Of a stretch of DNA of 49,109 nucleotides, positions 2,590 to 47,716 are shown in pieces; within the stretch, counting starts at the first letter, position 1, and every line of letters starts with the position of its first letter. This DNA is from Dokdonia sinensis (GTDB taxonomy: Bacteria; Bacteroidota; Bacteroidia; Flavobacteriales; Flavobacteriaceae). The stretch spans positions 1-49,109 of the forward strand of contig NZ_REFV01000020.1 in the NCBI RefSeq assembly GCF_003688895.1, in the 5' to 3' direction. A program made the position numbers and the translations under genes. Under the pieces are notes generated by a model. That model had not been told where the DNA came from and searched no databases. It was given only the letters and a program-made list of their open reading frames with translations.

Positions 2590-2605
2590 CGCTTTCGCGA
2601 AAGCG
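2590..2605. repeat. Dispersed 16-bp palindrome, perfect copy
   Basis: Exact CGCTTTCGCGAAAGCG. It is intergenic, between the photolyase and SDR genes and 59 bp after the SDR stop. First of 16 related sites in the window. Confidence 0.95.
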
Positions 2606-2663
2606 AATACATAATCCTTCAAAGTTTAAAAACTGAAAACCACATCCGTAAAATTGTGAATTT

Positions 2664-3362
2664 TTAATTTACATTAAGGGTACTCATACCGCCATCTACG
2701 CCTAATACTTGTCCTGTAATCCAGCTACTCTCATCTCCTAAAAGGAAGGCAGCAACACTTGCAATATCTTCAGGTTGTCCCACGCGTTTCATAGGGTGGC
2801 GGGCATCCATCATATCCTTCTTTTTGTCATTGCTCAAGAGCCTTTCTGCTAGAGGTGTATCAGTAAGGGAAGGCGCGATAACATTTACTCTAATCTTTGG
2901 CGCATATTCGGCAGCCAGCGCTTTTGCAAATCCCTCGATGGCACCCTTAGCCGCCGCAACGCTAGTGTGGAAAGGCATCCCAACTTTTACAGCCACGGTA
3001 CTAAAGAACACCATACTCGCTTGGTCAGATTTTTTAAGATGAGCCATAACCTGATGCACTGTTTTTACAAGGCTTAAAAAGTTAAGCTCCATATCTTCCC
3101 TAAAGGTCTCCGTACTCAGCATCTTAAATGGTTTTAGATTTATAGAGCCAGGGCAATATACAAAGCCATCAATGCGCTCTGGTAGCTGACTCAGGTCAAG
3201 TTCATCATTTTCGGCATCATATTCTATATGGTCTACCTCCAGATTACCCAATTTTTCGTTAGTTCTTGAGGCGACATAAATATTATGTTTTTCGTTCAAG
3301 GTTCGGGCAATTTCAAATCCTATCCCGTGGCTTCCGCCTATTAAAAGTATATTCTTTCTCAT
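2664..3362 (-). CDS. Short-chain dehydrogenase/reductase-like protein lacking the catalytic Tyr
   Basis: The 232 residues form a Rossmann-fold SDR with the cofactor loop GGSHGIG (9-15), a PG pair in place of the usual NNAG (71-72), Ser121 and Lys139. In the canonical YxxxK motif the position four before Lys139 is Val135, so the catalytic tyrosine is absent. The surrounding sequence (SVAAAKGAIEGF) is otherwise well conserved, as are the NVIAPS loop after the motif and the C-terminal GQVLGVDGG. The protein probably still binds a dinucleotide, but standard SDR chemistry is doubtful. It starts 1 bp after the SRPBCC gene stops, so the two are surely co-transcribed. Its location by a photolyase suggests a role in light-stress physiology; the substrate is unknown. 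Confidence 0.85.
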   Translation of the reverse strand: MRKNILLIGGSHGIGFEIARTLNEKHNIYVASRTNEKLGNLEVDHIEYDAENDELDLSQLPERIDGFVYCPGSINLKPFKMLSTETFREDMELNFLSLVKTVHQVMAHLKKSDQASMVFFSTVAVKVGMPFHTSVAAAKGAIEGFAKALAAEYAPKIRVNVIAPSLTDTPLAERLLSNDKKKDMMDARHPMKRVGQPEDIASVAAFLLGDESSWITGQVLGVDGGMSTLNVN

Positions 3363-3363
3363 A

Positions 3364-3879
3364 TTATGCTAGTATTTCGTGTTTGTGTTTACCGCTATTT
3401 TCTTCTTCAGTATTATTATGATAAGTCCCAAAAAGTTCTACGAGTTTATGCTTTCGGTATTCAAAAATTTCGTCCAACTTAGGTTTTACTAAAAAGGGAT
3501 GTACCCATTGTCCCAAAATGCCTGCAGGGACCTTATAATCTACAATATCTTCCATCTCTACCCCGCCAGGAATTTCTTTTATAAAATGTTTATGATGCCA
3601 GAGTGCATATGGACCGTAACGTTGTTCGTCTACAAAGAATTTTTTATGTTCTACACTAGTGATTTCTGTAACCCATTTAGTTTTTATCCCCATAATAGGA
3701 GTGACAATATATTGTATGAGTTGTCCAGCATACATAGGTCGGTCTGCTCCAGAAAGGATTTTAAAACCCATGTAATCTGGGGTTATTGTTTTAAGATTTC
3801 TAGGGTCCGATAAAAAGTCCCAAGCTTCGTCTACAGATATAGGAAGATTCTGTTTGGAGTGTAGTGTGTAAATTTTCAT
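3364..3879 (-). CDS. SRPBCC-family ligand-binding protein
   Basis: This 171-residue protein has the START/Bet v1-like SRPBCC pattern: an initial strand (HSKQNLPISVDEAWDFLSDP), a central QYIVTPIMGIKTKWVTEI strand pair, a YGPYALWHHKHF segment and a long C-terminal helix (EIFEYRKHKLVELF). Relatives are often called cell-division inhibitor-like or cyclase/dehydrase proteins, but the ligand is unknown. It is cytoplasmic with no signal peptide. It heads the SRPBCC-SDR pair. A plausible promoter lies just upstream on the minus strand: TACTTTTA at 3885-3892, with TTG 16 bp further up. Confidence 0.8.
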   Translation of the reverse strand: MKIYTLHSKQNLPISVDEAWDFLSDPRNLKTITPDYMGFKILSGADRPMYAGQLIQYIVTPIMGIKTKWVTEITSVEHKKFFVDEQRYGPYALWHHKHFIKEIPGGVEMEDIVDYKVPAGILGQWVHPFLVKPKLDEIFEYRKHKLVELFGTYHNNTEEENSGKHKHEILA

Positions 3880-3884
3880 AAGTA

Positions 3885-3911
3885 TAAAAGTACAATCTAT
3901 TTGTTTAACAA
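3885..3911 (-). promoter_or_regulatory. Possible promoter of the SRPBCC-SDR(-photolyase) group
   Basis: On the minus strand TACTTTTA (3885-3892) matches the Bacteroidota -7 box TAnnTTTG at 7 of 8 positions. TTG (3909-3911) stands 16 bp upstream, slightly closer than the usual 19. The leader would be only a few nt. Confidence 0.35.
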
Positions 3912-3941
3912 TAAAGTGTGATTAGTTAAACAAAACAGAAA

Positions 3942-5848: not shown

Positions 5849-5897
5849 CAAGCTGCTATATTAAGGTTTTGTTAACAATTAGCAGATTTGTTAATGC

Positions 5898-5905
5898 TAT
5901 TTTTG
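5898..5905 (+). promoter_or_regulatory. -7 box of the DUF2911 gene
   Basis: TATTTTTG is a full match to TAnnTTTG and faces away from the aquaporin promoter. Transcription would begin near 5912, putting the 5918-5933 palindrome at the very 5' end of the mRNA. No well-spaced TTG is seen. Confidence 0.4.
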
Positions 5906-5917
5906 TGGGTATGGGTG

Positions 5918-5933
5918 CGCTTTCGCGAAAGCG
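5918..5933. repeat. Dispersed 16-bp palindrome, perfect copy (5' leader)
   Basis: Exact CGCTTTCGCGAAAGCG, 38 bp before the DUF2911 start and 13 bp after its predicted -7 box, so it is probably transcribed and able to fold as a leader hairpin. Confidence 0.95.
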
Positions 5934-5971
5934 GAATAACATTCACCATCAAACCTTTAAAACACAATACA

Positions 5972-7342: not shown

Positions 7343-8313
7343 TATTTAAGCCCTATTTGATTGCGTATTCCGTCCAGAAGCATCATAAGCTGCTTACTTT
7401 TTTCAAAAGTCATTATGCTGCTTTCAGTTTTTCCTTGAGCTAGCATCTCTTGACAATGTAGGATCTCATAGTGGTACCCATTCACATTTACAGGAAACTC
7501 CTTGAGCGTATTCCTACCTTCTGCGATTACAGTTACAGCAGATGGCTCGTGAAAACGGCTGTTAATGAGCACTTTTCCAAACTCAAGTTCAATAGTGCAA
7601 ATTGTATCCGTCTTTTCATCTATGGCGCAGTACAATTGAGCAGTTACGTCATTTCCGTAATCTAACACGATGGATACACTATGATCTACACCAGTAGGGC
7701 CCAGTTTTCCTTCGGCTTTAATGTTGTCCGTGTATCCTAGCATACTCAATGCGGCAAAAACGGGATATATGCCTACGTCCAGTAAGCTCCCGCCACCTAA
7801 ACCTTTATTAAATAATCGACCCTCTGGATTATATTCTGGGTCTATCCCGAAGTCTGCTTTAAGGGATTTTATTTTTCCCAAGTTTCCAGAGTGTACGGTT
7901 TCTAAGGCGTAATTGTAATGCGGTAAGAAATGTGTCCATAACGCTTCCATTAAAAAAAGTTTTTCCGCTTTCGCGAAAGCGCACATCTCGGCAACCTCCT
8001 CCAGATTCATCCCAAATGCCTTCTCGCAAAGCACTGCTTTCTTGTTCTTGAGACAAAGCAACGTATGCTCCTTATGAAACATATGTGGCGTAGCAACATA
8101 AATAATATCTACCGCCGAAGATTGCGCAAGCTCTTCATAAGAGCCAAAAGCCTCCAACGCCTCAAACTCCTCACCAAAAGCCTTCGCCTTTTCCAGACTC
8201 CGACTTCCTACCGCCTGCAGGATAGCACCTTCTGTCTGTTGTAAATCTTGGGCAAATTTTTCGGCTATGTGACCACAACCTAAAATACCCCAGCGTGTTT
8301 CTTTCATACTCAT
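7339..8313 (-). CDS. Gfo/Idh/MocA-family oxidoreductase (cytoplasmic)
   Basis: The 324 residues carry the Rossmann fold WGILGCGHIAEKFA, the catalytic CEKAFGMN variant of EKP (the proline is replaced by alanine), and the C-terminal domain opening GGGSLLDVGIYPVFAAL. No signal peptide is present, unlike the Tat-exported paralogue at 3942. The start (MSMKETRW) is 1 bp after the symporter stop; a second Met two residues on is equally possible. The operon suggests it oxidises a sugar or cyclitol imported by the symporter. A dispersed palindrome lies inside the gene, encoding CAFAKAEK near residue 115, in the helix leading to the KLFLMEALWTHFLP segment. Confidence 0.88.
   Translation of the reverse strand: MSMKETRWGILGCGHIAEKFAQDLQQTEGAILQAVGSRSLEKAKAFGEEFEALEAFGSYEELAQSSAVDIIYVATPHMFHKEHTLLCLKNKKAVLCEKAFGMNLEEVAEMCAFAKAEKLFLMEALWTHFLPHYNYALETVHSGNLGKIKSLKADFGIDPEYNPEGRLFNKGLGGGSLLDVGIYPVFAALSMLGYTDNIKAEGKLGPTGVDHSVSIVLDYGNDVTAQLYCAIDEKTDTICTIELEFGKVLINSRFHEPSAVTVIAEGRNTLKEFPVNVNGYHYEILHCQEMLAQGKTESSIMTFEKSKQLMMLLDGIRNQIGLKY
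7966..7981. repeat. Dispersed 16-bp palindrome, perfect copy (inside oxidoreductase gene)
   Basis: Exact CGCTTTCGCGAAAGCG, read in the minus-strand gene as AFAKA. Confidence 0.95.
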
Positions 8314-10141: not shown

Positions 10142-12676
10142 CTATTGTTTGATTCTTTCCTGTTTCTCTTTACCAACAGAAAGCATATTTGCAAACAGTT
10201 TATAAGCTCCAGAAACCCCAGCAGGCAATTCTCTAAAGAAACTGATACCTGTATAGATATACTGCCCTTTTCCGTATGGTGCGATGAGGAGACTACCATC
10301 TTTTGCAGTTTCACCTTTATCGTTCATAGAGAGGATTGGGGTGTATTCGTCTGCCCATTCGTCTGGAAAATAAAGGCCGCGCTCTTGTGTCCAGCCTTCA
10401 AAGTCTTTTTCAGTCAATTTGTTTGGGAAATTTACAAGTGGATGGTCTTTAGCAAGAATCCGTACTTCGCTATTTTCATCAGTAACTCTGTCACGGGATA
10501 GGCTCAACTCGTAAGGTGCCCCGATTTTTGTATCGCCCCAGCGACCGCTAGTGTTGTATTGAGCGATGAGCGTCCCGCCGTTTTCTACATAGTCTAGAAG
10601 TAGCGGTTGTTTGGTTTGCATTTCTTCTACCACATTGTATGCACGAATTCCTACAACCACTGCGTCAAACTGAGACAGTAGCTCTGGCGTGATGGTTTTT
10701 GGGTCCAGCGTTGCAACTTGGTAACCTATTTGCTCCAGATTTTCTGGCACTGCATCGCCAGCACCCTGAATGTAGCCTATGTAGTTTCCTTCACGTTTGA
10801 TGTCTAGTCGCACTACCTTTGCCTTTGATGGTAAGAATAAGGTTTGTAATGGGATATGATCATAGTCTATTTGCACCATCTCGCGGTTAAAATCCTCGCC
10901 GTTGTACGTTACTCTTGGGATGATAAAACCTTCGTTCTCCCCAGCGGGCGGCGTTACTTCAAAAATAACTTCCTTGGATTCATTCTTATTTTCAATAGAA
11001 ATATCAAAACTTTCAGGTTGTATCGTCCATCCCGCCGAATGGTCCAAAAAGACCTTTCCTTTTAAGTTTGCAGTATGAGCGGTTATTGTTATGGGGATCT
11101 TTTTGGGTGCCGCTTTCGCGAAAATAAAAATCTTAGAGTCCACCTTTGCCGAAACAGCAGGCACAATTTCAAACGGTTCGTACACTTCGCCTTTTACGCG
11201 GTCGTTGTATTTGTAAACTATTGGCTTCTCAATTGAAATGGGGACTCCAGCGACAGTCAAATCAAAACGAACGGTATTTGTAACAGGAGTTTCTGGCTTT
11301 CCTATGAGTCTGCGGTCTTCCACATTATACATTCCTAGCGTTCCCTCTTCACGTAACCAATACGCCGAGGTCATTTTAAAATCTGAATCCACCACAAACT
11401 TCGCCGAAGTATTTTCGGCTTCATTATTTGAGAGTGAGGTGCTCCAGCTAATCGTTTGATTGTTAGGAGTGATTACCGCCTTATTTATAGCAATATTTGC
11501 ATCGCTGCGATTTATAGCTTCTATATTTAAAGTGATTTCGTCACCCTCGGTTGCCATTGCGATATCTGATGCTGCCTCGAGATATAATCCTGAACAAGCA
11601 ATGATGAGGTCCTGTATTTCTTGACTCTTAATCGCCTTCCAATGGGCATCTTCTATTTTTTGAACTGCAGTATATGCTTGCGCTAAAGCCGAAACACTTT
11701 TCGCTGGATTCTTAAAATCATAATTGGCGATGATGTTGTTCATAATTGTTTGAACCGTTGCACCACCTTTTACGCGATTCCAAGAAGTATCTATACCTTC
11801 AAAGATGTCGTTTGTTTTTGGCATCTCGCCACGAAGTAATTCGAAGTAGGTCTCATCGCTACCACGTCTTCCCGTATTTCCAAATCCTTGCGATTTATGC
11901 TGGCTCCGACTCAACGCCGAAATTTCTGTGTTGGACAATCCGTAAGCAGGGTAGTAGGTACCTACGTCTATATTTACGAGCTTAGACTTGTCTGCTTTTT
12001 CAAAGTTCTCTCTACTACCGTAAAACCACCAAGAGGTATTGAAGAACTGGCGACTGGGTTGCCACGTTTGAGTGTATTCTAATTGCTTTGGATATTTAGA
12101 AGCATCGCCTGCGAGGTCATAGGCTTCTACACTGAGCATTGCGCTTGAAGTATGGTGACCGTGTGTACTTCCCGGAGACCGATGGTCAAAACGGTTTATG
12201 ATGACATCTGGTTTAAATGTGCGTATGGCCCAAACAACATCTCCGAGAACTTCGTCTTTGTTCCAGATAGCGAGGGTCTCGTCAGGATGTTTGGAGTACC
12301 CAAAATCGTTTGCTCTTGTAAATCGTTGTTCTCCGCCGTCGGTGGCTCTCGCAGCAAGCAGCTCCTGTGTTCGAATGATACCAAGAAGTTCTCTTAGCTC
12401 TGGACCTATGATATTTTGTCCTCCATCGCCTCTTGTTAAAGAAAGATAAGCTGTTCTTGCTTTTACCGTATTTGCAAAATAGGAGATCGCCGTAGTGTTC
12501 TCATCATCTGGATGTGCCGCCACATATAAGACAGAGCCTAAGAAATTAAGCTTTTTGATGTCCTCATAGATTTTGGAAGCAGTAGGTTTTTTAGGTTTTA
12601 ATGTGATTCCCTGAGCGGAAATTTTCGCGAAAGCGAAACAAAGAAATAGAACAGTGAGTAGTGTGGATTTACGCAT
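10142..12676 (-). CDS. Secreted PIG-L family deacetylase with C-terminal GATase1-like domain
   Basis: This is a predicted Zn-dependent N-deacetylase acting in the periplasm or outside. The 844 residues have a signal peptide (cleavage near SAQG, 20-23), the LmbE/PIG-L motif AHPDDE (54-59) and the second metal motif HGHH (172-175). A long beta-sandwich middle follows (about 380-620), then a ThuA/GATase1-like alpha/beta domain (from about 640, with QFDAVVVGIRAYN and the GGTLIAQYN turn). A -7 box TATATTTG on the minus strand (12702-12709) gives a short leader. It opens the operon with the symporter and oxidoreductase. One eroded palindrome encodes part of the signal peptide and another falls in the middle region. 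Confidence 0.9.
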   Translation of the reverse strand: MRKSTLLTVLFLCFAFAKISAQGITLKPKKPTASKIYEDIKKLNFLGSVLYVAAHPDDENTTAISYFANTVKARTAYLSLTRGDGGQNIIGPELRELLGIIRTQELLAARATDGGEQRFTRANDFGYSKHPDETLAIWNKDEVLGDVVWAIRTFKPDVIINRFDHRSPGSTHGHHTSSAMLSVEAYDLAGDASKYPKQLEYTQTWQPSRQFFNTSWWFYGSRENFEKADKSKLVNIDVGTYYPAYGLSNTEISALSRSQHKSQGFGNTGRRGSDETYFELLRGEMPKTNDIFEGIDTSWNRVKGGATVQTIMNNIIANYDFKNPAKSVSALAQAYTAVQKIEDAHWKAIKSQEIQDLIIACSGLYLEAASDIAMATEGDEITLNIEAINRSDANIAINKAVITPNNQTISWSTSLSNNEAENTSAKFVVDSDFKMTSAYWLREEGTLGMYNVEDRRLIGKPETPVTNTVRFDLTVAGVPISIEKPIVYKYNDRVKGEVYEPFEIVPAVSAKVDSKIFIFAKAAPKKIPITITAHTANLKGKVFLDHSAGWTIQPESFDISIENKNESKEVIFEVTPPAGENEGFIIPRVTYNGEDFNREMVQIDYDHIPLQTLFLPSKAKVVRLDIKREGNYIGYIQGAGDAVPENLEQIGYQVATLDPKTITPELLSQFDAVVVGIRAYNVVEEMQTKQPLLLDYVENGGTLIAQYNTSGRWGDTKIGAPYELSLSRDRVTDENSEVRILAKDHPLVNFPNKLTEKDFEGWTQERGLYFPDEWADEYTPILSMNDKGETAKDGSLLIAPYGKGQYIYTGISFFRELPAGVSGAYKLFANMLSVGKEKQERIKQ
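11111..11126. repeat. Eroded copy of the dispersed palindrome (inside PIG-L gene)
   Basis: The left arm and core CGCTTTCGCGAAA are intact while the last three bases are changed. It encodes IFAKAA in the beta-rich middle region of the deacetylase. Confidence 0.8.
12620..12635. repeat. Eroded copy of the dispersed palindrome (PIG-L signal peptide)
   Basis: The core and right arm TTTTCGCGAAAGCG are intact, the left end is changed. It encodes FAFAK in the hydrophobic core and end of the signal peptide. Confidence 0.8.
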
Positions 12677-15245: not shown

Positions 15246-15316
15246 CGTTGTGGATTTTAATGTTTTTGGTTAGGACAACGTTCACGCATATCGTCAGAGG
15301 TTATCATAAGCGGATG

Positions 15317-19291: not shown

Positions 19292-20704
19292 TTATCTCTT
19301 CTCCAGCAACACTACATTTTCCACGTGATGCGTTTGCGGGAACATATCTACAGGTTGTACTCGGGTTACTTTGTATGTCTCATCTAGTAACGCTAGGTCC
19401 CTCGCTTGTGTTGCGCTGTTGCAACTTACGTAAACGACTTTTTGCGGTGCAATGTTTAAGATTTGTTTAACCACATCGCCGTGCATCCCGTCTCGCGGTG
19501 GGTCAGTAATGATTACATCTGGAATCCCGTGAGTATTTATAAATTCTGTATTGAAGACATTTTTCATATCTCCTACATAAAACTCTGTATTTGTAATTCC
19601 GTTGCGCTCTGCATTTTCCTTTGCGGCCGTGATGGCGTCTGGAACCGCTTCTACACCGATTACCTTTTTTGCATCTTTTGCCACAAACTGAGCAATGGTA
19701 CCCGTTCCTGTGTACAAATCGTACACAAGTTCGTCACCTGTGAGTCCTGCAAAATCACGAGTGATCTTATACAATTCATAAGCTTGCGCCGAGTTGGTTT
19801 GATAAAAAGACTTAGCGTTTATTTTAAACTTTAAGCCCTCCATTTCTTCAAAAATGTGGTCGCGACCGTGATACACTTCTATTTTCTGGTCATAGATGGT
19901 ATCGTTTCCTTTACTGTTTATGACATATAATAAGGAAGTGATTTCTGGGAAAGTATCTTTAATGTAATCCATTAACAAGGTGCGCAGGGCAACATCCTCT
20001 TTAAAAAATTGCACTAGCACCATTAATTCTCCCGTGCTCGAAGTCCTGATCATTAAAGTGCGCAGTAAGCCTTCTTGATTGCGAGCATTATAAAATGCAA
20101 GTCCATTTGTCGTAGCAAATTCTTTGATTCCATTGCGTATGGCGTTGCTGGGGTCACGTTGTAAGTGGCATTTCTCAATATCAAGAATTTTGTCCCACAT
20201 TCCCGCGATATGAAAACCTAGCGCATTGCGGTCCTCTATAACTTCGTCGCTACGTATCTGGTCCAGCGTAAGCCATTTTGAGTCTGAAAAGCCAAACTCC
20301 ATTTTGTTGCGATAAAAATACTGTTCGGCGCTACCGGCGATTGGGGTGATTTCTGGAAGCTCTATTTTTCCGAGACGTTTTAGGTTATTTTCAACTTCCT
20401 GCTGTTTGTATTCCAGCTGGTATTGATACTCCATATGTTGCCATTTACAGCCACCACAAGCTTCAAAATGCTGACATTGTGGGGTTGTACGCTTTCGCGA
20501 AAGCGTAACAACCTCCGTAGCCGTTGCTTCATAGTATGACTTGCGTTTTTTTGTGGTCTGTACGTGTACCACATCTCCAGGAACGGCATTGTTTATAAAG
20601 ATGACTTTCCCGTCTGGTGCGTGGCCTATGGCTTTACCCTTTGCTCCAGCATCTGTTACTTCAATATTTTCAAATACAACACGATTTTGTTTACGTCTTC
20701 CCAT
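19292..20704 (-). CDS. rlmD: 23S rRNA (uracil-C5)-methyltransferase RlmD-like
   Basis: This SAM-dependent enzyme adds C5-methyl to a 23S rRNA uracil (U1939 in E. coli). The 470 residues hold a TRAM domain (about 10-65), four [4Fe-4S] cysteines (Cys77, Cys83, Cys86 and Cys179), a Rossmann SAM-binding domain (YDLYTGTGTIAQF), the DPPRDGMH motif and the nucleophile Cys428 in VSCNS. Bacteroidota often carry two paralogues, so the exact target uracil is uncertain. A -7 box TATTTTTG on the minus strand (20709-20716) is only 5 bp from the ATG, implying an almost leaderless mRNA. The palindrome at 20490 encodes TLSRKR between TRAM and the cluster domain. Confidence 0.93.
   Translation of the reverse strand: MGRRKQNRVVFENIEVTDAGAKGKAIGHAPDGKVIFINNAVPGDVVHVQTTKKRKSYYEATATEVVTLSRKRTTPQCQHFEACGGCKWQHMEYQYQLEYKQQEVENNLKRLGKIELPEITPIAGSAEQYFYRNKMEFGFSDSKWLTLDQIRSDEVIEDRNALGFHIAGMWDKILDIEKCHLQRDPSNAIRNGIKEFATTNGLAFYNARNQEGLLRTLMIRTSSTGELMVLVQFFKEDVALRTLLMDYIKDTFPEITSLLYVINSKGNDTIYDQKIEVYHGRDHIFEEMEGLKFKINAKSFYQTNSAQAYELYKITRDFAGLTGDELVYDLYTGTGTIAQFVAKDAKKVIGVEAVPDAITAAKENAERNGITNTEFYVGDMKNVFNTEFINTHGIPDVIITDPPRDGMHGDVVKQILNIAPQKVVYVSCNSATQARDLALLDETYKVTRVQPVDMFPQTHHVENVVLLEKR
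20490..20505. repeat. Dispersed 16-bp palindrome, perfect copy (inside rlmD)
   Basis: Exact CGCTTTCGCGAAAGCG, read as LSRKR, a frame used only once among the genic copies. It falls in the linker between the TRAM domain and the Fe-S cysteines. Confidence 0.95.
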
Positions 20705-20856: not shown

Positions 20857-23800
20857 TTGGTTCATTTTAAATATTACCTTTTCTTATTCCTTTTTGGCTT
20901 TTCTTGCCTTGTTGCGTCTGCTCAATCCAGCAATACGTTTACTTCAAGAATGATTTCTGAAAAAACTGTCGATACTCTTGAAGTCGTATCCATAGATCAA
21001 AATCAAGGGCTCAAACAACTCAATGTGCGTGCTGTAGTGCAAGATGATCTAGATTATATCTGGGTAGGAACAGAGGATGGAGTGCAGCGCTATGACGGTT
21101 ACGGATTTATATCAAAAAAGCTATCCCTTCCAGACGGTAGTGATGTTCAGGATAATTACATAGAAGACCTGCACTTTACTAAGGATACGTTATGGATAGG
21201 AACACTCAAAAGCGGAGTACTAGGGTACAAACTTTCTGAAGATCGTTTTTTTGATGTTGCTGGACTCCGCGATGACAGCGCGCTATTACTAAATCGAGGG
21301 ATTATTGCTATAGACGATGAAAATTTACTTTTTTCGTCTGAGAATCAATTTGGCATTTATAACCGAAAATCCAAAAGTTTTGAGCGGTTCACCCTCCCAG
21401 AAAGTAAAAATGGAGCTTATGTGACAGATGCTGTAGTTTGGGACGAGGACGAATATATTCTAGGGACTTCTACAGAGGGAGCATTTCGGTTTAACAAAAA
21501 AAAGAATGCATTTACACCATTTAATGAGATTCCTAAAATACCCGTAAATGCATTGCTATGGCTGGATAATCAACTCGCCATAGGAACAGCTAGCGGACTC
21601 TATCTTTATGACCGCACAACTGGTATTACACAAAAAACCAATATTACTGATCATATTATGTGTTTAGAACACATTGATAATATGTCCATATATATAGGCT
21701 CAAAAACGGGCTTGATGCGTCTAGAGAATAACGAAACGGCTCAGAAAATCATTCTTAAAGGAACTAACGGTAAAGTATATGATCCTGTTGAAATCTACGA
21801 GATTCATCAAGATGATAAGGGAAATACTTGGTTTGGATCAGAAGGAGAGGGAATGTTTTACCACAATGATTACAGGAAGAAATTTGTCACTCAGAAAATA
21901 AAATTAGAGGAGTATCCTTCGGCAATTAAAATTAGTTCGTTTCAGTTTGAAAAAGAGGCTGACAGTACGTTGTGGGTGGCGACAACTTTTGGTGTGGTAA
22001 AATACGATATGGTTGCCAAAACTAGTAAACTCTTTGCAACAGTTCCAGAGGAAGGTCCTGCATACATTTTACATAAAGATGATTATGGCAATTTTTGGTC
22101 AGGTGGTTATGGATATGGTGTGATGCTTTTTGATGAAAAGTCCCAAAAATTCAAACAATACTTACACGATCCAAATAACCCCAAAAGCCTCGCCGAAAAT
22201 GATGTTCCAGAAATCATACCAATAGATGAAAAGCGCGTTTGGGTCTCGAGTATTTCATCCGGAATACAGGAAATGAACATTGCCGAAGGGACATTTACTC
22301 CCATTCTCATTAACGGCGAAAAAATAAATAGGACGAGAACACACTTTTACGATAAAGAAGGCTACTTGTGGCTAGGAGGCGATAATGGTCTGTACCGATA
22401 TAAAGAAGGTGAGGAGCTTTCTCATTTTACCAGTGGAGATGAAGCAACCGGGGGGCTGAGTGGAAAAAGAATCTTTGGGATTCGTCAGGCTTCGGACAAC
22501 TCCTTTTGGGTCGCAACAAACCACGGTCTCACACACCTGATGTCAGATTTTGAAACTTCGGTGCAGTATACAATGAACGAAGGCTTGCCTAACAATTTAA
22601 TGTACACGCTGGAGATAGATGATAATGATAATGTATGGGTAAGTTCTAACGAAGGACTCTCTATGCTGGATGTGGCAACGGGTTTGTTTACAAATTACAC
22701 GGTAAAAGATGGGCTACAGAACAATGAGTTTAATGGGAAATGCTCTTATAAAGATGAATTTGGCAACCTCTATTTTGGTGGAGTAGATGGATTTAATATT
22801 TTTCATCCAGACAGACTCAAGGAAAATCCCCATACACCAGAGGTTCACATCGATAGAGTAGAGCTCTTTAACAGTCCGCTGGAGCGCAATGAGCTTTTTA
22901 AGGACACCTTGGTTTTTAAGAGTGATGAGAATGTTATCACCTTTGGGTACACCGCACTCAATTATCTAAACCCGAACAAGGTTAGCTATCAGTTTAAGAT
23001 GGAAGGTTTTGATGAGACGTGGCGTCCCGAAACTACAGATCGCACGACCACATACACAAACTTAAATCCAGGCACCTATCGCTTTTTAGTTAAAGCGAGT
23101 AATGACGTAGGCATCTGGAATAATGAACCAGATATGATGACTGTCATTGTCGTACCACCGTGGTACCAGCAATGGTGGTTCCGAGTGCTGGCAGTTGTAC
23201 TTTTCTTGCTTTCCGGTATTATGTACTATCTGTATAAAACAAACAAACTTAAGAAGGATAAACTCAAACTTACCCGCCTTGTCGAAGAGCGCACACAAGA
23301 AGTAAAGGAAAAGAACGAAGCGCTCACGACAGCTTACAATGAATCGGAATCCCAGCGAGAGCGCATTACGTTCCTGATGCAGGAGCTTAATCACCGAGTA
23401 AAGAATAATTTACAGATTATCTCGAGCCTGCTTAATATACAGGCGCATTCTCTCGAGGATACAGATGCTATTGAGGCGTTGCAAGTTGCCAAACAGCGTA
23501 TTCTGACTATTTCCCACATTCAGCAGGCATTTGCTCAGGATGATGATGCGATTCATCTTTCGGCGTTTATAAAAGAGTTAGTTTCGGCGGTGCTCAAGGT
23601 TTTGGGCAATGAGAGCACTCCATTATTTAAAGTAGAATATGACCTAGAAGATATTTCGGTTCCCAGCGGGCAAACTACCTTGATAGGCCTCGTTCTCAAT
23701 GAGCTCATTACAAATGTGTATAAATATGCTTTTGACCGCTTTCGCGAAAGCAATACCTTAAAAATTTCCACTTCCATTACCGAAGGTGACATCATTTTAA

Positions 23801-28198: not shown

Positions 28199-28214
28199 AG
28201 CTTTCGCGAAAGCG
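28199..28214. repeat. Dispersed palindrome, 15 of 16 (intergenic)
   Basis: AGCTTTCGCGAAAGCG, first base changed. It is intergenic, 45 bp after the GT2 stop in that gene's direction. Confidence 0.9.
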
Positions 28215-31899: not shown

Positions 31900-32757
31900 A
31901 TGGATTATCTAAACCTATTCTGGAAGAGAAAACAGCTTCTCATAGTATTCTCTATATTAATATTACTGAATAGTCTTACACTTTTGTTTAGTGATATGAC
32001 TAATAGCAGATATGTTAGGCTAATAAGTACAGCATTCTTCGTGCTTTTTTATCTAGTTATGAGCAAGAGGCGCAACAATTATGTACTAGCGGTCTTATTT
32101 TTCTTTCTCCTTAAGGATATTTTTATACAGAGCTATGAAGAAGGAGTGGGGTATATTATGTATTTAGCGTTCGGTATATTGGCGTATACAACCCTTGTTA
32201 TAGAACGTCTCCCTAAATTAAAGGAGATTACTCTTAATAAAACACTTGTTTTTGTCTCAATATTGCTCATCACGGCAAACACGTATACACTTCACGTAAT
32301 TATGAATATGATAGGTTTTGTGTTTGAAAGCACAACTCAGGTCGCGATGTTCTATATGTACGGCGCCTTTATGATGATACTTTCGGTTTCCGCTGTGGCA
32401 TATAATAATCAAGCAAACAGTAATAGGTCGCTACTTTTTACTTTTATGGTTTTTGCTTTTATTCTTTCAGATGTTACTTCCCTGTTTGCCTACTATTTTG
32501 GCATAGAATTCTGCTACTACATAGACCGTGTGAGCTATCTTCTAGGGTTTGCATTTTTGATAAATTATGGACTTAATTTCAGTCTTATTAGAGAAGAAAA
32601 ACAGCAGTTAGAGCAACTGATAGGTAATGAATATGCAGAGATTGAGGATTTTGACTATTCCGCTTTCGCGAAAGCGTATTCAGAAGAATTTGAAATAGCA
32701 GACTCAAAAGCCTCCCTGTACACATTTTTAGAGAACCGCAATGCCAAAGATGGTTAA
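31900..32757 (+). CDS. Integral membrane protein of unknown function, about eight helices
   Basis: The 285 residues have seven or eight hydrophobic helices (about 10-30, 38-55, 60-75, 83-102, 113-132, 144-165, 174-196, 207-228) and a C-terminal cytoplasmic tail of about 55 residues. The layout recalls YhhN-like or sensor-type membrane domains, but no conserved motif settles it. The tail carries a palindrome-encoded SAFAKAYSEEF, so here too the repeat sits in a likely disordered part. It stands alone between purM and prfA. No promoter box is convincing. I do not recognise the family. Confidence 0.75.
   Translation: MDYLNLFWKRKQLLIVFSILILLNSLTLLFSDMTNSRYVRLISTAFFVLFYLVMSKRRNNYVLAVLFFFLLKDIFIQSYEEGVGYIMYLAFGILAYTTLVIERLPKLKEITLNKTLVFVSILLITANTYTLHVIMNMIGFVFESTTQVAMFYMYGAFMMILSVSAVAYNNQANSNRSLLFTFMVFAFILSDVTSLFAYYFGIEFCYYIDRVSYLLGFAFLINYGLNFSLIREEKQQLEQLIGNEYAEIEDFDYSAFAKAYSEEFEIADSKASLYTFLENRNAKDG
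32661..32676. repeat. Dispersed 16-bp palindrome, perfect copy (inside membrane protein gene)
   Basis: Exact CGCTTTCGCGAAAGCG, read as AFAKA in the cytoplasmic C-terminal tail. Confidence 0.95.
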
Positions 32758-36707: not shown

Positions 36708-36723
36708 CGCTTTCGCGAAAGCG
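36708..36723. repeat. Dispersed 16-bp palindrome, perfect copy (intergenic)
   Basis: Exact CGCTTTCGCGAAAGCG, 14 bp after the purU stop in that gene's direction, where it could fold as a 3' hairpin. Confidence 0.95.
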
Positions 36724-37736: not shown

Positions 37737-40700
37737 ATGGAACAAGCCACTCCTTATACACCTAAGCATAAAGTTAGAATCGTCACTGCCGCCTCATTAT
37801 TTGACGGCCACGATGCAGCGATCAATATTATGCGTCGTATCATTCAGAGCACAGGGGTTGAGGTCATTCATTTAGGTCACGATCGCTCGGTAGAGGAAGT
37901 GGTAAATACCGCTATTCAAGAAGATGCAAATGCCATTGCGATGACCTCCTATCAAGGCGGGCATAACGAGTATTTTAAATATATGTACGACCTGCTCCAA
38001 GAGAAAGGTGCGGGTCATATTAAGATTTTTGGTGGCGGCGGCGGTGTGATTTTACCAGAAGAAATCGAGGAATTGATGGATTACGGCATCACGCGTATTT
38101 ATTCCCCAGACGACGGTCGTGCGATGGGCTTGCAGGGAATGATAAATGATCTCGTACAGCAGTCTGATTATGCAATAGGAGATAAGCTTACCGTAGAAGT
38201 ATCCCGCTTAGGCGAAAAAAATCCCACGGCTATCGCTAGAGTTATTTCTGCCGCCGAAAACTTTCCCGAAGTTGCTAAAGATGCCCTAGCTCAAATCCAT
38301 AAGAAAAACGAAAAATCACTCACCCCAGTTCTAGGAATTACAGGAACAGGTGGCGCTGGAAAATCATCGCTGGTTGACGAACTCGTACGTAGGTTTCTTA
38401 TCGACTTTCCAGAAAAGACCATAGGATTAATTTCTGTTGATCCTTCTAAGCGTAAAACAGGCGGTGCACTACTGGGCGACCGTATCCGCATGAACGCGAT
38501 TAACAATGAGCGTGTGTATATGCGTTCCCTTGCGACAAGACAAAGCAATCTGGCGTTATCCAAATATGTAGGCGAAGCCATACAAGTCTTAAAAGCAGCC
38601 CAATTTGATTTGATCATTCTAGAAACCTCAGGTATAGGGCAGTCAGATACTGAGATACTTGAGCATAGTGACGTTTCCTTATATGTAATGACACCAGAAT
38701 TTGGTGCAGCAACTCAGCTTGAAAAAATAGATATGCTAGATTTTGCAGATCTTGTTGCTATTAACAAGTTTGATAAACGCGGCTCGTTAGACGCACTACG
38801 TGATGTGAAAAAACAATATATGCGCAATAATAACTTGTGGGATATCCCGCAAGATGAGCTGCCTGTTTTTGGTACGATTGCCAGTCAGTTTAACGATCCA
38901 GGAATGAATACGCTCTACAAGCGTATTATGGAAAAGGTAAATACGGTAAACGAAGCAGACCTACAGAGTACTTTTGAGATTAGCCAAGAGATGAGTGAAA
39001 AGATTTTTGTCATTCCACCGGCACGCACAAGATATCTGAGTGAAATTGCAGAGAGTAATCGAGCGTACGACGCTTTCGCGAAAGCGCAACAAGAAACAGC
39101 ACAACGCCTCTACGGAATTTATAAAACTATAGAAACCATTGCTGGGGATTCACCAAAATTGGATAAAGCCGGATTGGAATTAGCGGACACTGAGCGTAGC
39201 CGAAGTGTAAGCGACGAGGACAAAGATTTAATTAAACTGCTCCTTGCCCAATTTGACCGAGTAAAAATGGATCTCGATCCTTACAATTGGGAAATTATAA
39301 CCAGTTGGGAAGAAAAGGTAAATAGATATAGACAACCTGTATACACCTTCAAAGTAAGAGATAAGGAAATTAATTTACCAACGCATAGTGAGTCCCTCTC
39401 GCATACTCAAATCCCAAAGGTAGCTTTGCCAAAATACCAAGCCTGGGGAGACATATTGATCTGGTGCTTGCAAGAAAATGTGCCTGGGGAATTTCCATAC
39501 ACGGCTGGATTGTATCCATTTAAACGAACGGGAGAAGACCCTACGAGGATGTTTGCAGGAGAAGGAGGGCCAGAGCGTACCAATAAACGTTTTCACTATG
39601 TGAGTTTAGGATTGCCAGCAAAGCGACTGAGTACGGCCTTTGACAGTGTAACCTTATATGGAAATGATCCAGGACTACGACCAGATATTTACGGAAAAAT
39701 AGGAAATGCAGGAGTAAGTATATGCTGTCTGGATGATGCAAAGAAACTGTATTCTGGATTTGATTTAAGTCACGCAATGACATCGGTAAGTATGACCATA
39801 AATGGACCAGCACCTATGTTGCTAGGGTTCTTTATGAACGCTGCCATCGACCAGAATTGTGAGAAATATATAAAAGAAAACGATTTAGAAGACGAGGTAG
39901 AAGCAAAAATCGCCGAAATCTATAAGGATAAAACCCGGCCAGCCTATCAAGGCGATTTACCAGAAGGGAATGATGGTTTAGGTCTAATGTTACTTGGCGT
40001 TACAGGAGATCAAGTATTACCAGCAGAGGTGTACAACCGCATAAAAGTAGAAACCCTCACACAAGTACGAGGAACCGTACAAGCAGACATTCTCAAGGAA
40101 GATCAAGCGCAGAATACCTGTATTTTTTCTACAGAGTTTGCACTGCGACTAATGGGTGATGTACAAGAATATTTTATTGAGCAAAAGGTGCGTAATTTCT
40201 ATTCAGTCTCGATTTCTGGATATCACATTGCAGAGGCAGGTGCAAACCCTATTACGCAACTTGCATTGACCCTTTCTAACGGATTTACGTATGTTGAGTA
40301 TTACCTAAGCCGTGGGATGGACATTAACAAGTTTGGACCCAACTTGTCATTTTTCTTTTCAAATGGAATCGACCCAGAGTATGCGGTCATAGGTCGCGTA
40401 GCTCGTAAGATTTGGGCAAAAGCGATGAAAGAAAAGTACAAAGCAAATCCACGTGCCCAAATGCTCAAGTACCACATCCAGACCTCTGGACGCAGCTTGC
40501 ACGCGCAGGAAATAGATTTTAACGATATACGTACCACATTACAAGCATTATATGCGATTTATGATAACTGTAACTCACTTCATACAAATGCATATGATGA
40601 GGCTATCACCACACCTACGGAAGAAAGTGTACGCCGTGCGATGGCCATACAATTGATTATCAACAAGGAGCTTGGACTTGCTAAAAACGAAAACCCTATC

Positions 40701-41360: not shown

Positions 41361-41376
41361 CGCTTTCGCGAAAGCG
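41361..41376. repeat. Dispersed 16-bp palindrome, perfect copy (intergenic)
   Basis: Exact CGCTTTCGCGAAAGCG, ending 5 bp after the stop of the minus-strand hybrid kinase gene in its direction. Confidence 0.95.
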
Positions 41377-43782: not shown

Positions 43783-45477
43783 CTAATGCTCTAACTTATA
43801 AACTACCGCTTGCCATGGTCTGAGCGCAAATTCCTTAAACGTTTTATCATCTAGAATTTTGTCATTTGAAATGAGCTTGATCTTACGGTTATAGGTGATG
43901 TTTACTGGGAGTGTAAATCTTTCGATTTCATCAGAGAAGTTTAGAAGAATTAAAAATCGCTCTGCCTCCAGAGTTCGTGTATAAGCATACACTTTATCGT
44001 GTTCCGGATAAATGCAATGATAATCTCCGTAAACTAAAACTTTATTTTTCTTACGTAATTCTGTGATTTTTCTAAAGTAGTTTAAAATAGAGTATTTGTC
44101 TTTTTCTTGACTTTTGACATTTACCCCATCCTTGTAATCAGGATTTAGTTTTATCCAAGGCTCTGAGTTAGTAAATCCCGCATTTATAGTGTCATCCCAT
44201 TGCATCGGGGTACGGGCATTTTCTCGAGCGGCGTGTTGCTCACTTTCCATAAAAGCGTTGAGGTCTCCACCTCGTTGTTTTACAGTTTCATAACGGTTTA
44301 TTGTGTTAATATCTCTATAATCTTCTATATCTGTAAACTTGACATTGGTCATTCCTATTTCATCGCCTTGATAAAAGTAAGGGGTGCCTCGCATTGTAAG
44401 AAGAAATGTTTGGAGTAGGGTAGCGCTATTATGCCAATGCTCCGGGCTGTCATTTCCCCAGCGACTTACCGAACGTGGGAAATCGTGGTTTGCAAGGAAT
44501 AAAGAGCCCCATCCCGCTTTCGCGAAAGCGGTATCCCAATCATTAAAAATCTTTTTAAATTCTGTGAGTTTCCAGCCACCTTGTCTCATTTTAAATACTT
44601 CACCAGGCGCCCGATCTAAACTCATTAGGTCAAAATGGAAAAACATATCCATCTCCTTACGATCCTCGTGTACAAAATCAAGTGCATCCTCACGAGCTAT
44701 TCCTGGCCCTTCTCCCACGGTAAATGCATCATATTTTGAGATTACCTCGCGGTTGAGCTCATTTAGATACTCGTGTACTTTAGGACCATTTGCGTAGTAG
44801 GAAATAAATTCGTGAGGTTCTTGGGCATCAATTTCTGGATAAGTCGTGTCTTTGCTAATAAACGGTATCACATCCATCCGGAAGCCGTCCACACCTTTCT
44901 TGAACCAAAAATGCATCATATCATAAACCTCCTGCCGAACTTTTGGGTTTTCCCATTTTAGATCGGGTTGCTTAACCGCAAAATAGTGAAGGTAATAGGC
45001 GTCAGTCTTCTCATCATATTGCCAAGCATTTTCTTCTACATCAAAATAGCTCCAGCGCTTGGGTGGTGTTCCTTTCTCTGCTGGCCACCAGTGAAAATAG
45101 TCCCTGTATGGATTCTCCCGAGACTTGCGACTTTCCTGAAACCACTTGTGTTCATCACTGCAGTGGTTCACTACAAGATCCATAACCAATCTAAGATTTC
45201 GGGATTTCATTCCTGCCAGCAATTCGTCAAAATCTTCCATGGTTCCGAACTCAGACATAATCTTTCTGTAGTCTCGAATGTCATAACCATTATCATCATT
45301 GGGCGAATCATAAATAGGATTCAGCCAAATAATATCTACTCCCAAACTCGAAATGTAGTCCAGTTTCTCAATGATACCGCGCAAATCACCTATGCCATTT
45401 CCACTTGTGTCTTTGAATGATCGAGGATATATTTGATAAACGATTCCTTCTTTCCACCAGATCTCTTCTACTGCCAT
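43783..45477 (-). CDS. GH13 alpha-glucosidase (oligo-1,6-glucosidase type)
   Basis: This enzyme hydrolyses terminal alpha-linked glucose from maltose/isomaltose-type oligosaccharides in the cytoplasm. The 564 residues form the (beta/alpha)8 barrel, B domain and C-terminal sheet. Conserved GH13 regions are visible: DLVVNHCSDEH, GFRMDVIPFI (nucleophile Asp near 200), TVGEGPG (acid/base Glu near 255) and LANHDFPRSVSRWG (transition-state Asp near 329). The start region WWKEGIVYQIYPRSFKD is typical of oligo-1,6-glucosidases. A palindrome encodes TAFAKAGWG about 10 residues before the last catalytic motif. There is no signal peptide and no other sugar genes nearby. Confidence 0.92.
   Translation of the reverse strand: MAVEEIWWKEGIVYQIYPRSFKDTSGNGIGDLRGIIEKLDYISSLGVDIIWLNPIYDSPNDDNGYDIRDYRKIMSEFGTMEDFDELLAGMKSRNLRLVMDLVVNHCSDEHKWFQESRKSRENPYRDYFHWWPAEKGTPPKRWSYFDVEENAWQYDEKTDAYYLHYFAVKQPDLKWENPKVRQEVYDMMHFWFKKGVDGFRMDVIPFISKDTTYPEIDAQEPHEFISYYANGPKVHEYLNELNREVISKYDAFTVGEGPGIAREDALDFVHEDRKEMDMFFHFDLMSLDRAPGEVFKMRQGGWKLTEFKKIFNDWDTAFAKAGWGSLFLANHDFPRSVSRWGNDSPEHWHNSATLLQTFLLTMRGTPYFYQGDEIGMTNVKFTDIEDYRDINTINRYETVKQRGGDLNAFMESEQHAARENARTPMQWDDTINAGFTNSEPWIKLNPDYKDGVNVKSQEKDKYSILNYFRKITELRKKNKVLVYGDYHCIYPEHDKVYAYTRTLEAERFLILLNFSDEIERFTLPVNITYNRKIKLISNDKILDDKTFKEFALRPWQAVVYKLEH
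44515..44530. repeat. Dispersed 16-bp palindrome, perfect copy (inside GH13 gene)
   Basis: Exact CGCTTTCGCGAAAGCG, read as AFAKA in the loop before the LANHDF catalytic segment. Confidence 0.95.
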
Positions 45478-45511: not shown

Positions 45512-45527
45512 CGCTTTCGCGAAAGCG
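45512..45527. repeat. Dispersed 16-bp palindrome, perfect copy (intergenic)
   Basis: Exact CGCTTTCGCGAAAGCG, 14 bp after the pepT stop on the minus strand and 35 bp before the GH13 start. Confidence 0.95.
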
Positions 45528-45541
45528 TAATAAATCTAAAG

Positions 45542-46777: not shown

Positions 46778-46780
46778 ATA

Positions 46781-46851
46781 GTTCCCGCGACGGTGGGAAT
46801 CTACCCCCACAATCGACTTTTTTAAAATTTCATTCCCGCGAAGGCGGGAAT
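46781..46851. repeat. Pair of ATTCCCGC-type hairpin repeats
   Basis: GTTCCCGC-GACG-GTGGGAAT (46781-46800) and ATTCCCGC-GAAG-GCGGGAAT (46832-46851) are two copies of one hairpin, 51 bp apart, between the esterase stop and the pepT start. The second has a perfect 8-bp stem, the first has two G-U-type changes. A REP-like intergenic element; the one near 46851 could end the esterase transcript. Confidence 0.75.
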
Positions 46852-46855
46852 CCTA

Positions 46856-47677
46856 TCAATCTTTAGTAACATCCTTCTTGTAAATCGCCTTAAATCCTTC
46901 ATACACTGCAATGTGTAATGTATTGGAATGGTCTAAGTCTTCGAGATACTTAAAAGAAGTTTGTATTAGTCTGTCTTGTTTAAGTTGAGCTGTGAGAGCC
47001 ATAGCACCACTTTCCATAATGGGCCCTTCTTCTCCCACAGCAACAAATACTTTTTTCGGATTGTCTAGAGGCGCCCGTTTTAAAGGTAGTAATGAATTAT
47101 CATCCCACCACAAGCTCGGACTTATAATGATATAATTAGAGAATAATTCTGGCTTTTTCCAAAGAATCTCAGTCGCGAGCAAGCCTCCTAAAGATTGCCC
47201 GATGATTGTACGTTCCATAGTAGTACGATATTGCCTATTTATAAGCGGTTGCAACTCGTTTTCCAGAAATGCAATAAATTTTTCCGACCCACCCGTAGTT
47301 GGGAAATCTGCTTTGTCCTTCGCATTGGTCGTTGGATATGTAAAATCTCGTTTGCGATCTACATTTGCGATGCCCACCACAATGGACTCAGGTATGAGTT
47401 GCGCCCACGGAAATGTTGAGAATTGTACGAGTCCTGCGATATGGATAAAATCCTCGTCTGCACTTCCGTCTAAAAGATAAATTACTGGATATGCCTTCTT
47501 GTTTTCCGACTCGTAGGAAGGAGGAAGATAAATATTTACAACTCGTTTTTCTTTAAGAACATCAGATTGAAAAGTAAGCGTTTCCCCTATAACAAAAGGT
47601 TCTTTTTCGGCAAATTGATTTTGTGAGAAACACGTAACCGTCCAGAAAGCAAACAGTAAAAAGAAGATTTGTTTCAT
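46856..47677 (-). CDS. Secreted esterase-D/enterochelin-esterase-like hydrolase
   Basis: The 273 residues begin with a signal peptide (FFLLFAFWTVTCFSQ-N). The alpha/beta hydrolase fold shows VNIYLPPSYESENKKAYPVIYLLDGS, the nucleophile elbow GQSLGG (Ser162), and a C-terminal DLDHSNTLH with the likely catalytic His. This matches the PF00756 group, which includes siderophore esterases, S-formylglutathione hydrolases and feruloyl esterases. Being secreted, it most likely cleaves an ester in the periplasm, but no siderophore genes are near. Monocistronic, possible hairpin terminator at 46832-46851. Confidence 0.87.
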   Translation of the reverse strand: MKQIFFLLFAFWTVTCFSQNQFAEKEPFVIGETLTFQSDVLKEKRVVNIYLPPSYESENKKAYPVIYLLDGSADEDFIHIAGLVQFSTFPWAQLIPESIVVGIANVDRKRDFTYPTTNAKDKADFPTTGGSEKFIAFLENELQPLINRQYRTTMERTIIGQSLGGLLATEILWKKPELFSNYIIISPSLWWDDNSLLPLKRAPLDNPKKVFVAVGEEGPIMESGAMALTAQLKQDRLIQTSFKYLEDLDHSNTLHIAVYEGFKAIYKKDVTKD

Positions 47678-47700
47678 ACTCAGACATTTGTCATTTTTAA

Positions 47701-47716
47701 CGCTTTCGCGAAAACT
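47701..47716. repeat. Eroded copy of the dispersed palindrome (intergenic)
   Basis: CGCTTTCGCGAAAACT: left arm and core intact, right end changed. It lies in the divergent region between the esterase and pyrD. Confidence 0.8.

What the first reader, a model, noticed from the sequence alone, without database searches (positions are those of the whole stretch)
2590..47716. A 16-bp palindrome, CGCTTTCGCGAAAGCG, dispersed about every 3 kb
I count ten exact copies (2590, 5918, 7966, 20490, 32661, 36708, 39071, 41361, 44515, 45512), two with a single end mismatch (23737, 28199) and four with one arm eroded (11111, 12620, 26413, 47701). Chance expectation for a given 16-mer in 49 kb is about 1e-5. 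Seven of 16 sites are intergenic although intergenic DNA is only about a tenth of the window. The sequence is GC-rich against an AT-rich background. It is not next to any transposase. Candidates: binding site for an abundant nucleoid or segregation protein, a REP-like mobile palindrome moved by a distant RAYT-type transposase, or an mRNA hairpin.
Basis: seen in the sequence. Interest (0 to 1): 0.85.

Follow-up and report, generated by a model that had tools for sequence, protein, structure and literature searches.

The report
Evenly spaced palindromic genome mark, Dokdonia
Marine bacteria of the genus Dokdonia, and two other genera of the same family, carry hundreds of exact copies of one 16-letter palindrome, kept against mutation and set at regular intervals of about 3 kb, which looks like a genome-wide self-recognition mark such as a DNA-uptake signal, although the protein that reads it is not known.

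Summary
The 16-mer occurs 630 times in the window's genome (Dokdonia, Flavobacteriaceae), 138-711 times in 18 of 18 genomes searched of the genus, and 153-579 times in four genomes of two other genera; the other family and phylum genomes sampled have 0-13 copies.
It is not a mobile palindrome: in the two genes with usable orthologues the copies arose by substitution; positions are conserved (44 of 47 identical between two species); 11 of 15 palindrome-rich genomes have no RAYT-type gene. It is not part of a longer hairpin.
New: about 18 C-poor letters on each side, read toward the core; gaps under 1 kb are 4-6 times rarer than chance; some phages carry it, one with an integrase, a Nonlabens phage does not.
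In the window's genome a second, 20-bp palindrome sits inside the 16-mer at one fixed junction; site 26413 is such a case.
Best reading: a DNA-uptake-signal-like self-mark (0.45). Close rival: site of an abundant chromosome protein (0.38).

The parts
2590..2605 (.). exact 16-mer palindrome, intergenic
5918..5933 (.). exact 16-mer, upstream of the likely ATG of the 5888-6817 ORF (counted as intergenic)
7966..7981 (.). exact 16-mer inside a GFO/IDH/MocA oxidoreductase gene (AFAKA frame)
11111..11126 (.). site with three mismatches (right arm), inside a PIG-L deacetylase gene (10142-12676)
12620..12635 (.). site with three mismatches (left arm), near the 5' end of the same gene
20490..20505 (.). 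exact 16-mer inside a tRNA (uracil-5-)-methyltransferase family gene (LSRKR frame)
23737..23752 (.). one-mismatch site inside a histidine-kinase gene (RFRES frame)
26413..26449 (.). 16-mer interrupted by a second palindrome: CGCTTTCGCGAA (26413-26424), 21-bp insert (26425-26445), AGCG (26446-26449), in the linker of a twin-ATPase ABC (ABC-F type) gene
   Evidence: orthologous linkers in 7 of 13 sister genomes read AFAK without the insert
28199..28214 (.). one-mismatch site, intergenic
32661..32676 (.). exact 16-mer near the 3' end of a gene without a Pfam match (AFAKA frame)
36708..36723 (.). exact 16-mer, intergenic
39071..39086 (.). exact 16-mer inside the fused methylmalonyl-CoA mutase gene; arose by substitution (13 orthologues span it, 0 with a gap)
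41361..41376 (.). exact 16-mer, intergenic
44515..44530 (.). exact 16-mer inside an alpha-amylase family gene (AFAKA frame)
45512..45527 (.). exact 16-mer, intergenic
47701..47716 (.). two-mismatch site, counted as intergenic

Best explanation
A genome-wide self-recognition mark that works like the DNA-uptake signals of Haemophilus and Neisseria. Shown: one dyad-symmetric motif (16-bp core, TA on each side in most intergenic sites, and about 18 C-poor letters on each side), kept against mutation, evenly spaced, built by substitution where this could be tested, concentrated outside genes, and mostly at different places in different genera. Inferred: a symmetric (probably dimeric) DNA receptor of the natural-transformation apparatus prefers fragments that carry the site; recombination of such fragments creates and repairs sites (molecular drive); because one site per fragment is enough, sites settle at roughly fragment-length spacing (about 3 kb). 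The receptor is not identified, and competence of these bacteria is not shown.
For: Excess over the Markov expectation of about a million-fold. Spacing of the inner 10-mer: coefficient of variation 0.42-0.68 in ten Dokdonia stretches and 0.47 in g23; gaps under 1 kb 13 of 327 against 83.9 expected in six Dokdonia stretches and one of g23; in 1.25 Mb of the own genome 22 of 376 against 100.8 (summed; the two sets overlap); six other 6-bp palindromes there give 0.83-1.28. Conservation: core substitution 0.4% against 5.4% background, and 3.0% against 21.6%. Intergenic 57 of 133 sites on about 10% of the bases; 48 of 75 in-gene sites in one frame. Origin by substitution in two genes. Haemophilus phage HP1, which has an integrase, carries 17 uptake 9-mers (reversed-word control 3) with spacing CV 0.51; likewise some phage contigs here carry the palindrome, one of them with an integrase, while Nonlabens phage P12024S, with no annotated integrase, has none within 3 mismatches in 35.7 kb. 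ComEC is present in 15 of 15 palindrome-rich genomes tested. Riemerella columbina, placed in Flavobacteriaceae by its authors, is competent, and of three DNAs only its own competed at equal amount (PMC7965970, section read). Evenness, scarcity in constrained genes and high conservation are described for uptake signals (PMC7811141, PMC2397512, passages).
Against: Known uptake signals are not palindromes (PMC1939737 passage). I know of no report of competence in Dokdonia or Nonlabens (not searched for by name). ComEC is also in 14 of 14 comparison genomes without the grid, so it does not explain the distribution. No receptor candidate was found. Copies in phages could equally mean a use inside the cell. 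One author argues that uptake signals are less even than compaction sites should be; this grid is very even. The R. columbina authors found no clear uptake motif there.
Confidence: 0.45

Rival explanations
1. Binding site of an abundant intracellular protein that organises, segregates, repairs or marks the chromosome at about 3-kb intervals. A dimer reads the palindrome and contacts the C-poor flanks (about 52 bp in all); even spacing is selected for loop size or coverage.
For: Dyad symmetry and a long symmetric footprint fit a dimer. Very even spacing. Some phages keep copies.
Against: No second ParB-family gene: 14 of 15 palindrome-rich genomes have exactly one, G011 has two. 85 of 93 TTA-flanked sites of the G016 chromosome (the rest were not listed) show no large-scale bias over 3.0 Mb (chi-square P 0.36), unlike sites that avoid or favour the terminus. 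The protein would have to be gained or lost between genera of one family.
Confidence: 0.38
2. A HIP-type palindrome created by a methyltransferase and a methyl-directed repair bias, as proposed for cyanobacterial HIP1.
For: Highly iterated palindrome whose deviations fall on the outer letters, as for HIP1 (PMC4390886, abstract and passages).
Against: m5C methyltransferases (PF00145) are found in 6 of 15 palindrome-rich genomes and in 8 of 14 without the grid. 16-20 bp plus flanks exceeds any methyltransferase site I know. m6A and m4C enzymes were not tested.
Confidence: 0.07
3. A REP-like mobile palindrome moved by a RAYT-type transposase.
For: The own genome has one Y1_Tnp gene just over the cut-off and 3 of 3 g23 genomes have some; the own genome carries a second, apparently mobile palindrome.
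Against: Gapless in-gene origin: 13 of 13 spanning orthologues at 39071, 35 of 36 in pyrF. Conserved positions. Y1_Tnp absent in 10 of 11 Dokdonia and in G219. No shared flank sequence, only a compositional bias with TA at the edges.
Confidence: 0.03
4. RNA hairpin or bidirectional terminator.
For: The 16-mer folds as a hairpin (z -3.4, -0.4 and -2.0 for three sites).
Against: About equal density in convergent, divergent and tandem gaps; 75 of 133 sites lie inside genes. The flanks are T-rich before and A-rich after, the reverse of a bidirectional terminator (recalled). The inner letters are the most constant. Left and right flank letters match no more than chance (745 against 724 +/- 19 over 15 positions; only position -1 is somewhat higher, 67 against 54).
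Confidence: 0.03

Closest known systems
DNA uptake signals: USS of Pasteurellaceae, DUS of Neisseriaceae
   Same: Hundreds to thousands of exact copies, flanks that matter, relatively even spacing, permissive locations, strong conservation (passages), present in a phage of the host (HP1: 17 copies).
   Different: Palindromic; core 16-20 bp against 9-10; flanks marked by lack of C on the inward strand; phylum Bacteroidota; no receptor or uptake experiment.
HIP1 of cyanobacteria (GCGATCGC)
   Same: Highly iterated palindrome, outer letters most variable.
   Different: Twice as long; sparser (173 exact per Mb here against 300-2700 per Mb in most cyanobacteria, passage); no shared m5C methyltransferase; long directional flanks.
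Chromosome-organising palindromes: parS/ParB, Noc sites, matS/MatP (recalled)
   Same: 14-16-bp dyad recognised by a dimer (recalled).
   Different: Hundreds of copies over the whole chromosome; no extra ParB-family gene in 14 of 15 carriers.
Chi sites
   Same: Similar density (E. coli: 1008 in 4.64 Mb, table).
   Different: Chi is short, one-stranded and oriented (recalled); this site has dyad symmetry and cannot be oriented.
REP/BIME palindromes with RAYT (recalled)
   Same: Dispersed palindrome with intergenic excess.
   Different: Not inserted where testable; no Y1_Tnp gene in 11 of 15 carriers.

Membership tests
DNA uptake signal (USS/DUS) | Preferential uptake of DNA that carries the motif | not testable with these tools
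   needs an uptake assay
DNA uptake signal (USS/DUS) | Genome-wide excess of one exact motif | tested here: met
DNA uptake signal (USS/DUS) | More even spacing than chance | tested here: met
   for the inner 10-mer; exact 16-mers alone fail in some stretches; HP1 as yardstick
DNA uptake signal (USS/DUS) | Conserved sites in permissive DNA | tested here: met
DNA uptake signal (USS/DUS) | Scarce in newly acquired DNA | tested here: inconclusive
   the one large gap looked into in G016 holds two giant genes in a duplicated unit, not shown to be acquired; phage results mixed
DNA uptake signal (USS/DUS) | Host has a transformation apparatus | tested here: inconclusive
   ComEC in 29 of 29 genomes, with and without the grid; other parts not searched
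DNA uptake signal (USS/DUS) | Non-palindromic motif | tested here: not met
   perfect 16-bp dyad; a property of the known signals, not a logical requirement
HIP1-type palindrome | Cognate methyltransferase in carriers | tested here: inconclusive
   m5C family in only 6 of 15 carriers; m6A and m4C families not tested
REP/BIME with RAYT | RAYT (Y1_Tnp) in the genome | tested here: not met
   none in 11 of 15 carriers
REP/BIME with RAYT | Copies arise by insertion | tested here: not met
   (two genes)
Noc/ParB-type site | Dedicated second ParB-family reader | tested here: not met
   one ParB_N gene in 14 of 15 carriers
Bidirectional terminator hairpin | Excess between convergent genes over other gaps | tested here: not met
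   0.95, 0.78 and 0.84 per kb in convergent, divergent and tandem gaps

The most novel reading that the evidence does not exclude
A palindromic self-mark of a kind not described in Bacteroidota as far as I know: a 16-bp dyad with two 18-nt directional C-poor arms, read by an unidentified and possibly transferable protein that has imposed the same evenly spaced grid (an estimated 1,100 cores per genome, from 382 in 1.25 Mb) on at least two lineages separately, is carried by some phages, and serves as the landing pad of a second mobile palindrome that sits at one fixed position inside it.
Probability: 0.4. Interest if true: 0.86.

Novelty: new variant of a known kind. Interest (0 to 1): 0.76.

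Why it matters
If it is an uptake signal, it would be the first one known to me outside Pasteurellaceae and Neisseriaceae with a clear genomic grid, and the only palindromic one; it would make self-preference in transformation directly testable in marine Flavobacteriaceae. If it is a chromosome-protein site, it is among the densest exact sites of that length known to me and points to an unknown organiser. Either way, amplification of one motif at different places in different genera is a natural experiment in how a reader protein rewrites a genome, and the motif may tag DNA that came from these genera.

Tried and rejected
Mobile element, RNA hairpin or terminator, m5C HIP model and second-ParB reader: see rivals and membership tests. 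A longer cruciform: flank letters left and right are uncorrelated. Three-letter periodicity of T in the flanks was suspected to be a codon effect; it is also present in intergenic sites, so coding does not explain it all. C-to-T deamination of the flanks: G rises as well as T, so a pure deamination footprint does not fit. Rfam: only the L19 leader at 15276-15303. Named plasmids and phages searched with a 30-nt consensus: 8 and 4 weak records, none convincing. A comEC link: the site lies at the same codons in comEC in 10 of 10 Dokdonia fetched (9 exact, one with a mismatch) and in G219, but not in 3 of 3 g23 genomes nor in 6 of 6 genomes without the grid; taken as curious, not as evidence of function, since sites are everywhere.

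Evidence limits. Two of the in-gene comparisons were not used: L026 14494 lies in a variable protein end (26 of 28 orthologues with gaps) and L080 11418 had a single, doubtful orthologue; one pyrF orthologue of 36 had a gap. 31 of 50 sites did not align in the G016-G006 comparison, and of 26 G006 sites 10 did not align, 11 were exact, 2 had 1-2 substitutions and 3 were further off or gapped. Exact 16-mers alone are not significantly even in some stretches (G006, C1 first 240 kb, C23, the window, G219), and with its 38-kb gap the first 100 sites of G016 have CV 0.90. By the reversed-sequence control most sites with 4 mismatches (29 against 23) and some with 3 (27 against 7) are chance. G219 is weaker in every respect: more mismatches, little flank bias, spacing P 0.04, and its place on the tree is unresolved. 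Flank counts include orthologous pairs (G016 and G003); and the pooled gaps leave G003 out but still mix Dokdonia species whose stretches partly correspond. The comparison genomes mostly hold a few copies themselves (up to 13).

Literature: no paper in the held library contains the 16-mer; ten contain the 10-mer core, none on this subject by title (listing only); no paper holds 'highly iterated palindrome' with Flavobacteria; five contain Dokdonia and palindrom (one opened, passages, CRISPR wording only); nine contain 'highly iterated palindromic' (listing; one seen in abstract and passages); wider term searches gave nothing on this by title (listings); none contains a 15-mer of the second palindrome. 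Subscription journals are mostly not held.
Full report
OBSERVATION. In 449 kb of the same genome 83 exact copies stand against 7.8e-5 expected by an order-3 Markov model, and the seven most over-represented 10-mers (of those with at least 15 copies) are all pieces of the palindrome. The genome holds 630 exact copies.

WHERE IT OCCURS. The window is G000:C13. The genus is Dokdonia: G003 contig C1 has the same length, 850,193 bp, as NZ_CANMDS010000001.1, 'Uncultured Dokdonia sp. isolate 3-709'. The 18 genomes searched of the genus, the own one included, have 138-711 copies; 0 of 12 genomes from other families of the order have any. In 397 genomes of the family (237 genera) 48 have a match, but only three genera are iterated: g1 (Dokdonia), g23 (three genomes: 495, 579, 448) and g203 (one genome, G219: 153); all the others have 0-13 copies. 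In 178 genomes of the phylum 6 have a match, five of them with 1-2 copies. Among 80 named loci only two Dokdonia and one Nonlabens dokdonensis carry the 16-mer; g23 is therefore probably Nonlabens, which is not proven. On an icmF protein tree g23 is placed with Salegentibacter and Gillisia, apart from Dokdonia, on a long branch; the place of G219 is unresolved. Of 10 in-gene sites of G219 with a Dokdonia orthologue in hand, 2 lie at the same place; the one g23 site that could be compared does not. Most sites therefore arose separately, at least between Dokdonia and g23 and largely in G219.

ANATOMY. The inner TTTCGCGAAA is most constant; mismatches by position in 102 imperfect sites (1-4 mismatches) are 45, 31, 22, 5, 3, 11, 14, 4 | 5, 11, 12, 4, 2, 25, 27, 47 (most of the 4-mismatch sites are chance by the reversed control). 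In intergenic sites (116 half-flanks) position -2 is T in 95%, -1 is A in 78%, -6 is T in 68%, and C stays at 1-11% from -2 to -18, with 17% at -19 and 6-18% beyond; the genome average is 20%. The bias is symmetric: each strand is C-poor on its 5' side of the core. It holds in genes on both sides and in g23, and is weak in G219. Left and right letters are independent beyond position -1, so the flanks look like two separate half-contacts and not a stem. Flank letters change at the background rate while the core does not: composition, not exact sequence, is kept there.

EVOLUTION. Between G016 and G003 (94.4% identical), 47 of 50 sites align: 44 identical, 3 with one substitution, 0 gaps. Core substitution is 3 of 752 (0.4%) against 5.4% background; between G016 and G006 (77% identical) 9 of 302 (3.0%) against 21.6%. 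In the second pair 19 of 50 G016 sites align: 11 exact, 5 with 1-2 substitutions, 2 with an alignment gap at the edge of the core, 1 with more; of 26 G006 sites 16 align: 11 exact, 2 with 1-2 substitutions, 3 further off or gapped. Inside genes the palindrome replaced existing codons: in the mutase gene at 39071, 13 orthologues of other genera span the place and none has a gap; in pyrF of Nonlabens 36 span it and 1 has a gap (family names).

PLACEMENT. Of 133 sites in four stretches 75 are in genes (117.7 expected), 9 convergent, 12 divergent, 36 tandem, 1 unlabelled; densities 0.95, 0.78 and 0.84 per kb in the three kinds of gap against 0.13 in genes (genes predicted by a simple script). In genes 48 of 75 read AFAKA. 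Spacing is too regular. The first 100 sites of G016: no gap under 500 bp (10 expected), 2 of 99 under 1 kb (20% expected), CV 0.61 without one 38-kb gap and 0.90 with it; that gap holds two giant genes in a duplicated unit. For the inner 10-mer, 13 of 327 gaps under 1 kb against 83.9 expected; over the own-genome stretches, 22 of 376 against 100.8 (sum), and six control palindromes are close to random. The mean spacing of the inner 10-mer is 2.8-3.8 kb in all ten Dokdonia stretches computed, even where exact copies are sparse. A flank-selected subset, 85 of 93 sites, over 3.0 Mb of the G016 chromosome shows no large-scale bias (P 0.36).

MOBILE DNA. 41 viral stretches hold the 16-mer; single copies in GC-rich contigs are probably chance. 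Several contigs hold 2-6 copies, for example 6 in 27.9 kb held of a 37-kb contig with terminase, portal and tail-sheath genes, and one contig of a recurring phage type has an integrase. Phage P12024S, isolated on Persicivirga (now Nonlabens), has no site within 3 mismatches. Haemophilus phage HP1 has 17 uptake 9-mers, 3 in the reversed-word control. In genera with few copies, the one place read (G107) lies in an RND-efflux operon (ACR_tran) with four copies within 11 kb, and the same spacings recur in several genera, which suggests transferred DNA.

A SECOND PALINDROME INSIDE THE FIRST. In 1.25 Mb of the own genome, 10 gapless copies (up to 4 mismatches) of CCTGCCTGCCGGCAGGCAGG were found; for 8 of 10 the flanks join to the 16-mer within 5 mismatches at CGCT^TTCGCGAA^AGCG, and the other two (one decayed, one shortened) lie at the same junction by eye. 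Two further 21-bp copies, one of them at window 26413, lie at that junction too. None was found in 480 kb of G016, 180 kb of G006, 120 kb of G039 or 80 named loci; G219 has 3 in 180 kb, none at the 16-mer. In 7 of 13 sister genomes the ABC-F linker reads AFAK without the insert (variable linker, alignment loose). The own genome is the only one of 11 Dokdonia with a Y1_Tnp gene, but no copy of the 20-mer lies within the 4.5 kb fetched around it; what moves it is unknown.

WHO READS IT. RAYT-type, m5C-methyltransferase and second-ParB readers are not shared by the carriers. ComEC is present in all 29 genomes tested, which the uptake reading needs but which does not discriminate. Relatively even spacing, permissive placement, strong conservation and drive-like accumulation are what papers describe for uptake signals (passages), and a competent species placed in Flavobacteriaceae prefers its own DNA. 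The dyad symmetry and the very regular grid fit an intracellular dimer nearly as well. I put 0.45 on an uptake-like self-mark and 0.38 on an intracellular chromosome mark.

Noticed in passing
window 26425-26445; own genome contigs C1, C23, C39, C40: A second, 20-21-bp GC-rich palindrome that sits at one fixed junction inside the 16-mer; 12 copies in 1.25 Mb of the own genome, none in the other Dokdonia stretches sampled.
   Followed up: partly
own genome contig C1, listing; L324 near 3588: A half 16-mer preceded by a different GC-rich sequence (...CGACTACGCTCAGCGCAGGT): perhaps a third dispersed element at or near the same target.
   Followed up: no
L186 and L190 (G107), listing: Genera without the grid carry a few copies in one cluster with recurring spacings (933, 2446, 3460 bp), read in one case inside an RND-efflux operon: a possible tag of DNA transferred from palindrome-rich genera.
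   Followed up: partly
comEC, L264-L283: A site at the same RFRES codons of comEC in 10 of 10 Dokdonia fetched (9 exact) and in G219, absent in 3 of 3 g23 genomes and 6 of 6 genomes without the grid.
   Followed up: partly
G016:C1:285378-320307: Two giant genes of 4431 and 5060 codons, each next to a copy of the same pair of genes (653 and 318 codons): a tandem duplication with no exact palindrome over 38 kb and three imperfect ones.
   Followed up: no
G219 stretch, positions 116850 and 116962 of the fetched 180 kb: Two copies of the 20-bp palindrome 112 bp apart in identical context that looks like tRNA by eye.
   Followed up: no
window 15276-15303 (-): L19 ribosomal-protein leader of Flavobacteria (Rfam RF03130).
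   Followed up: no
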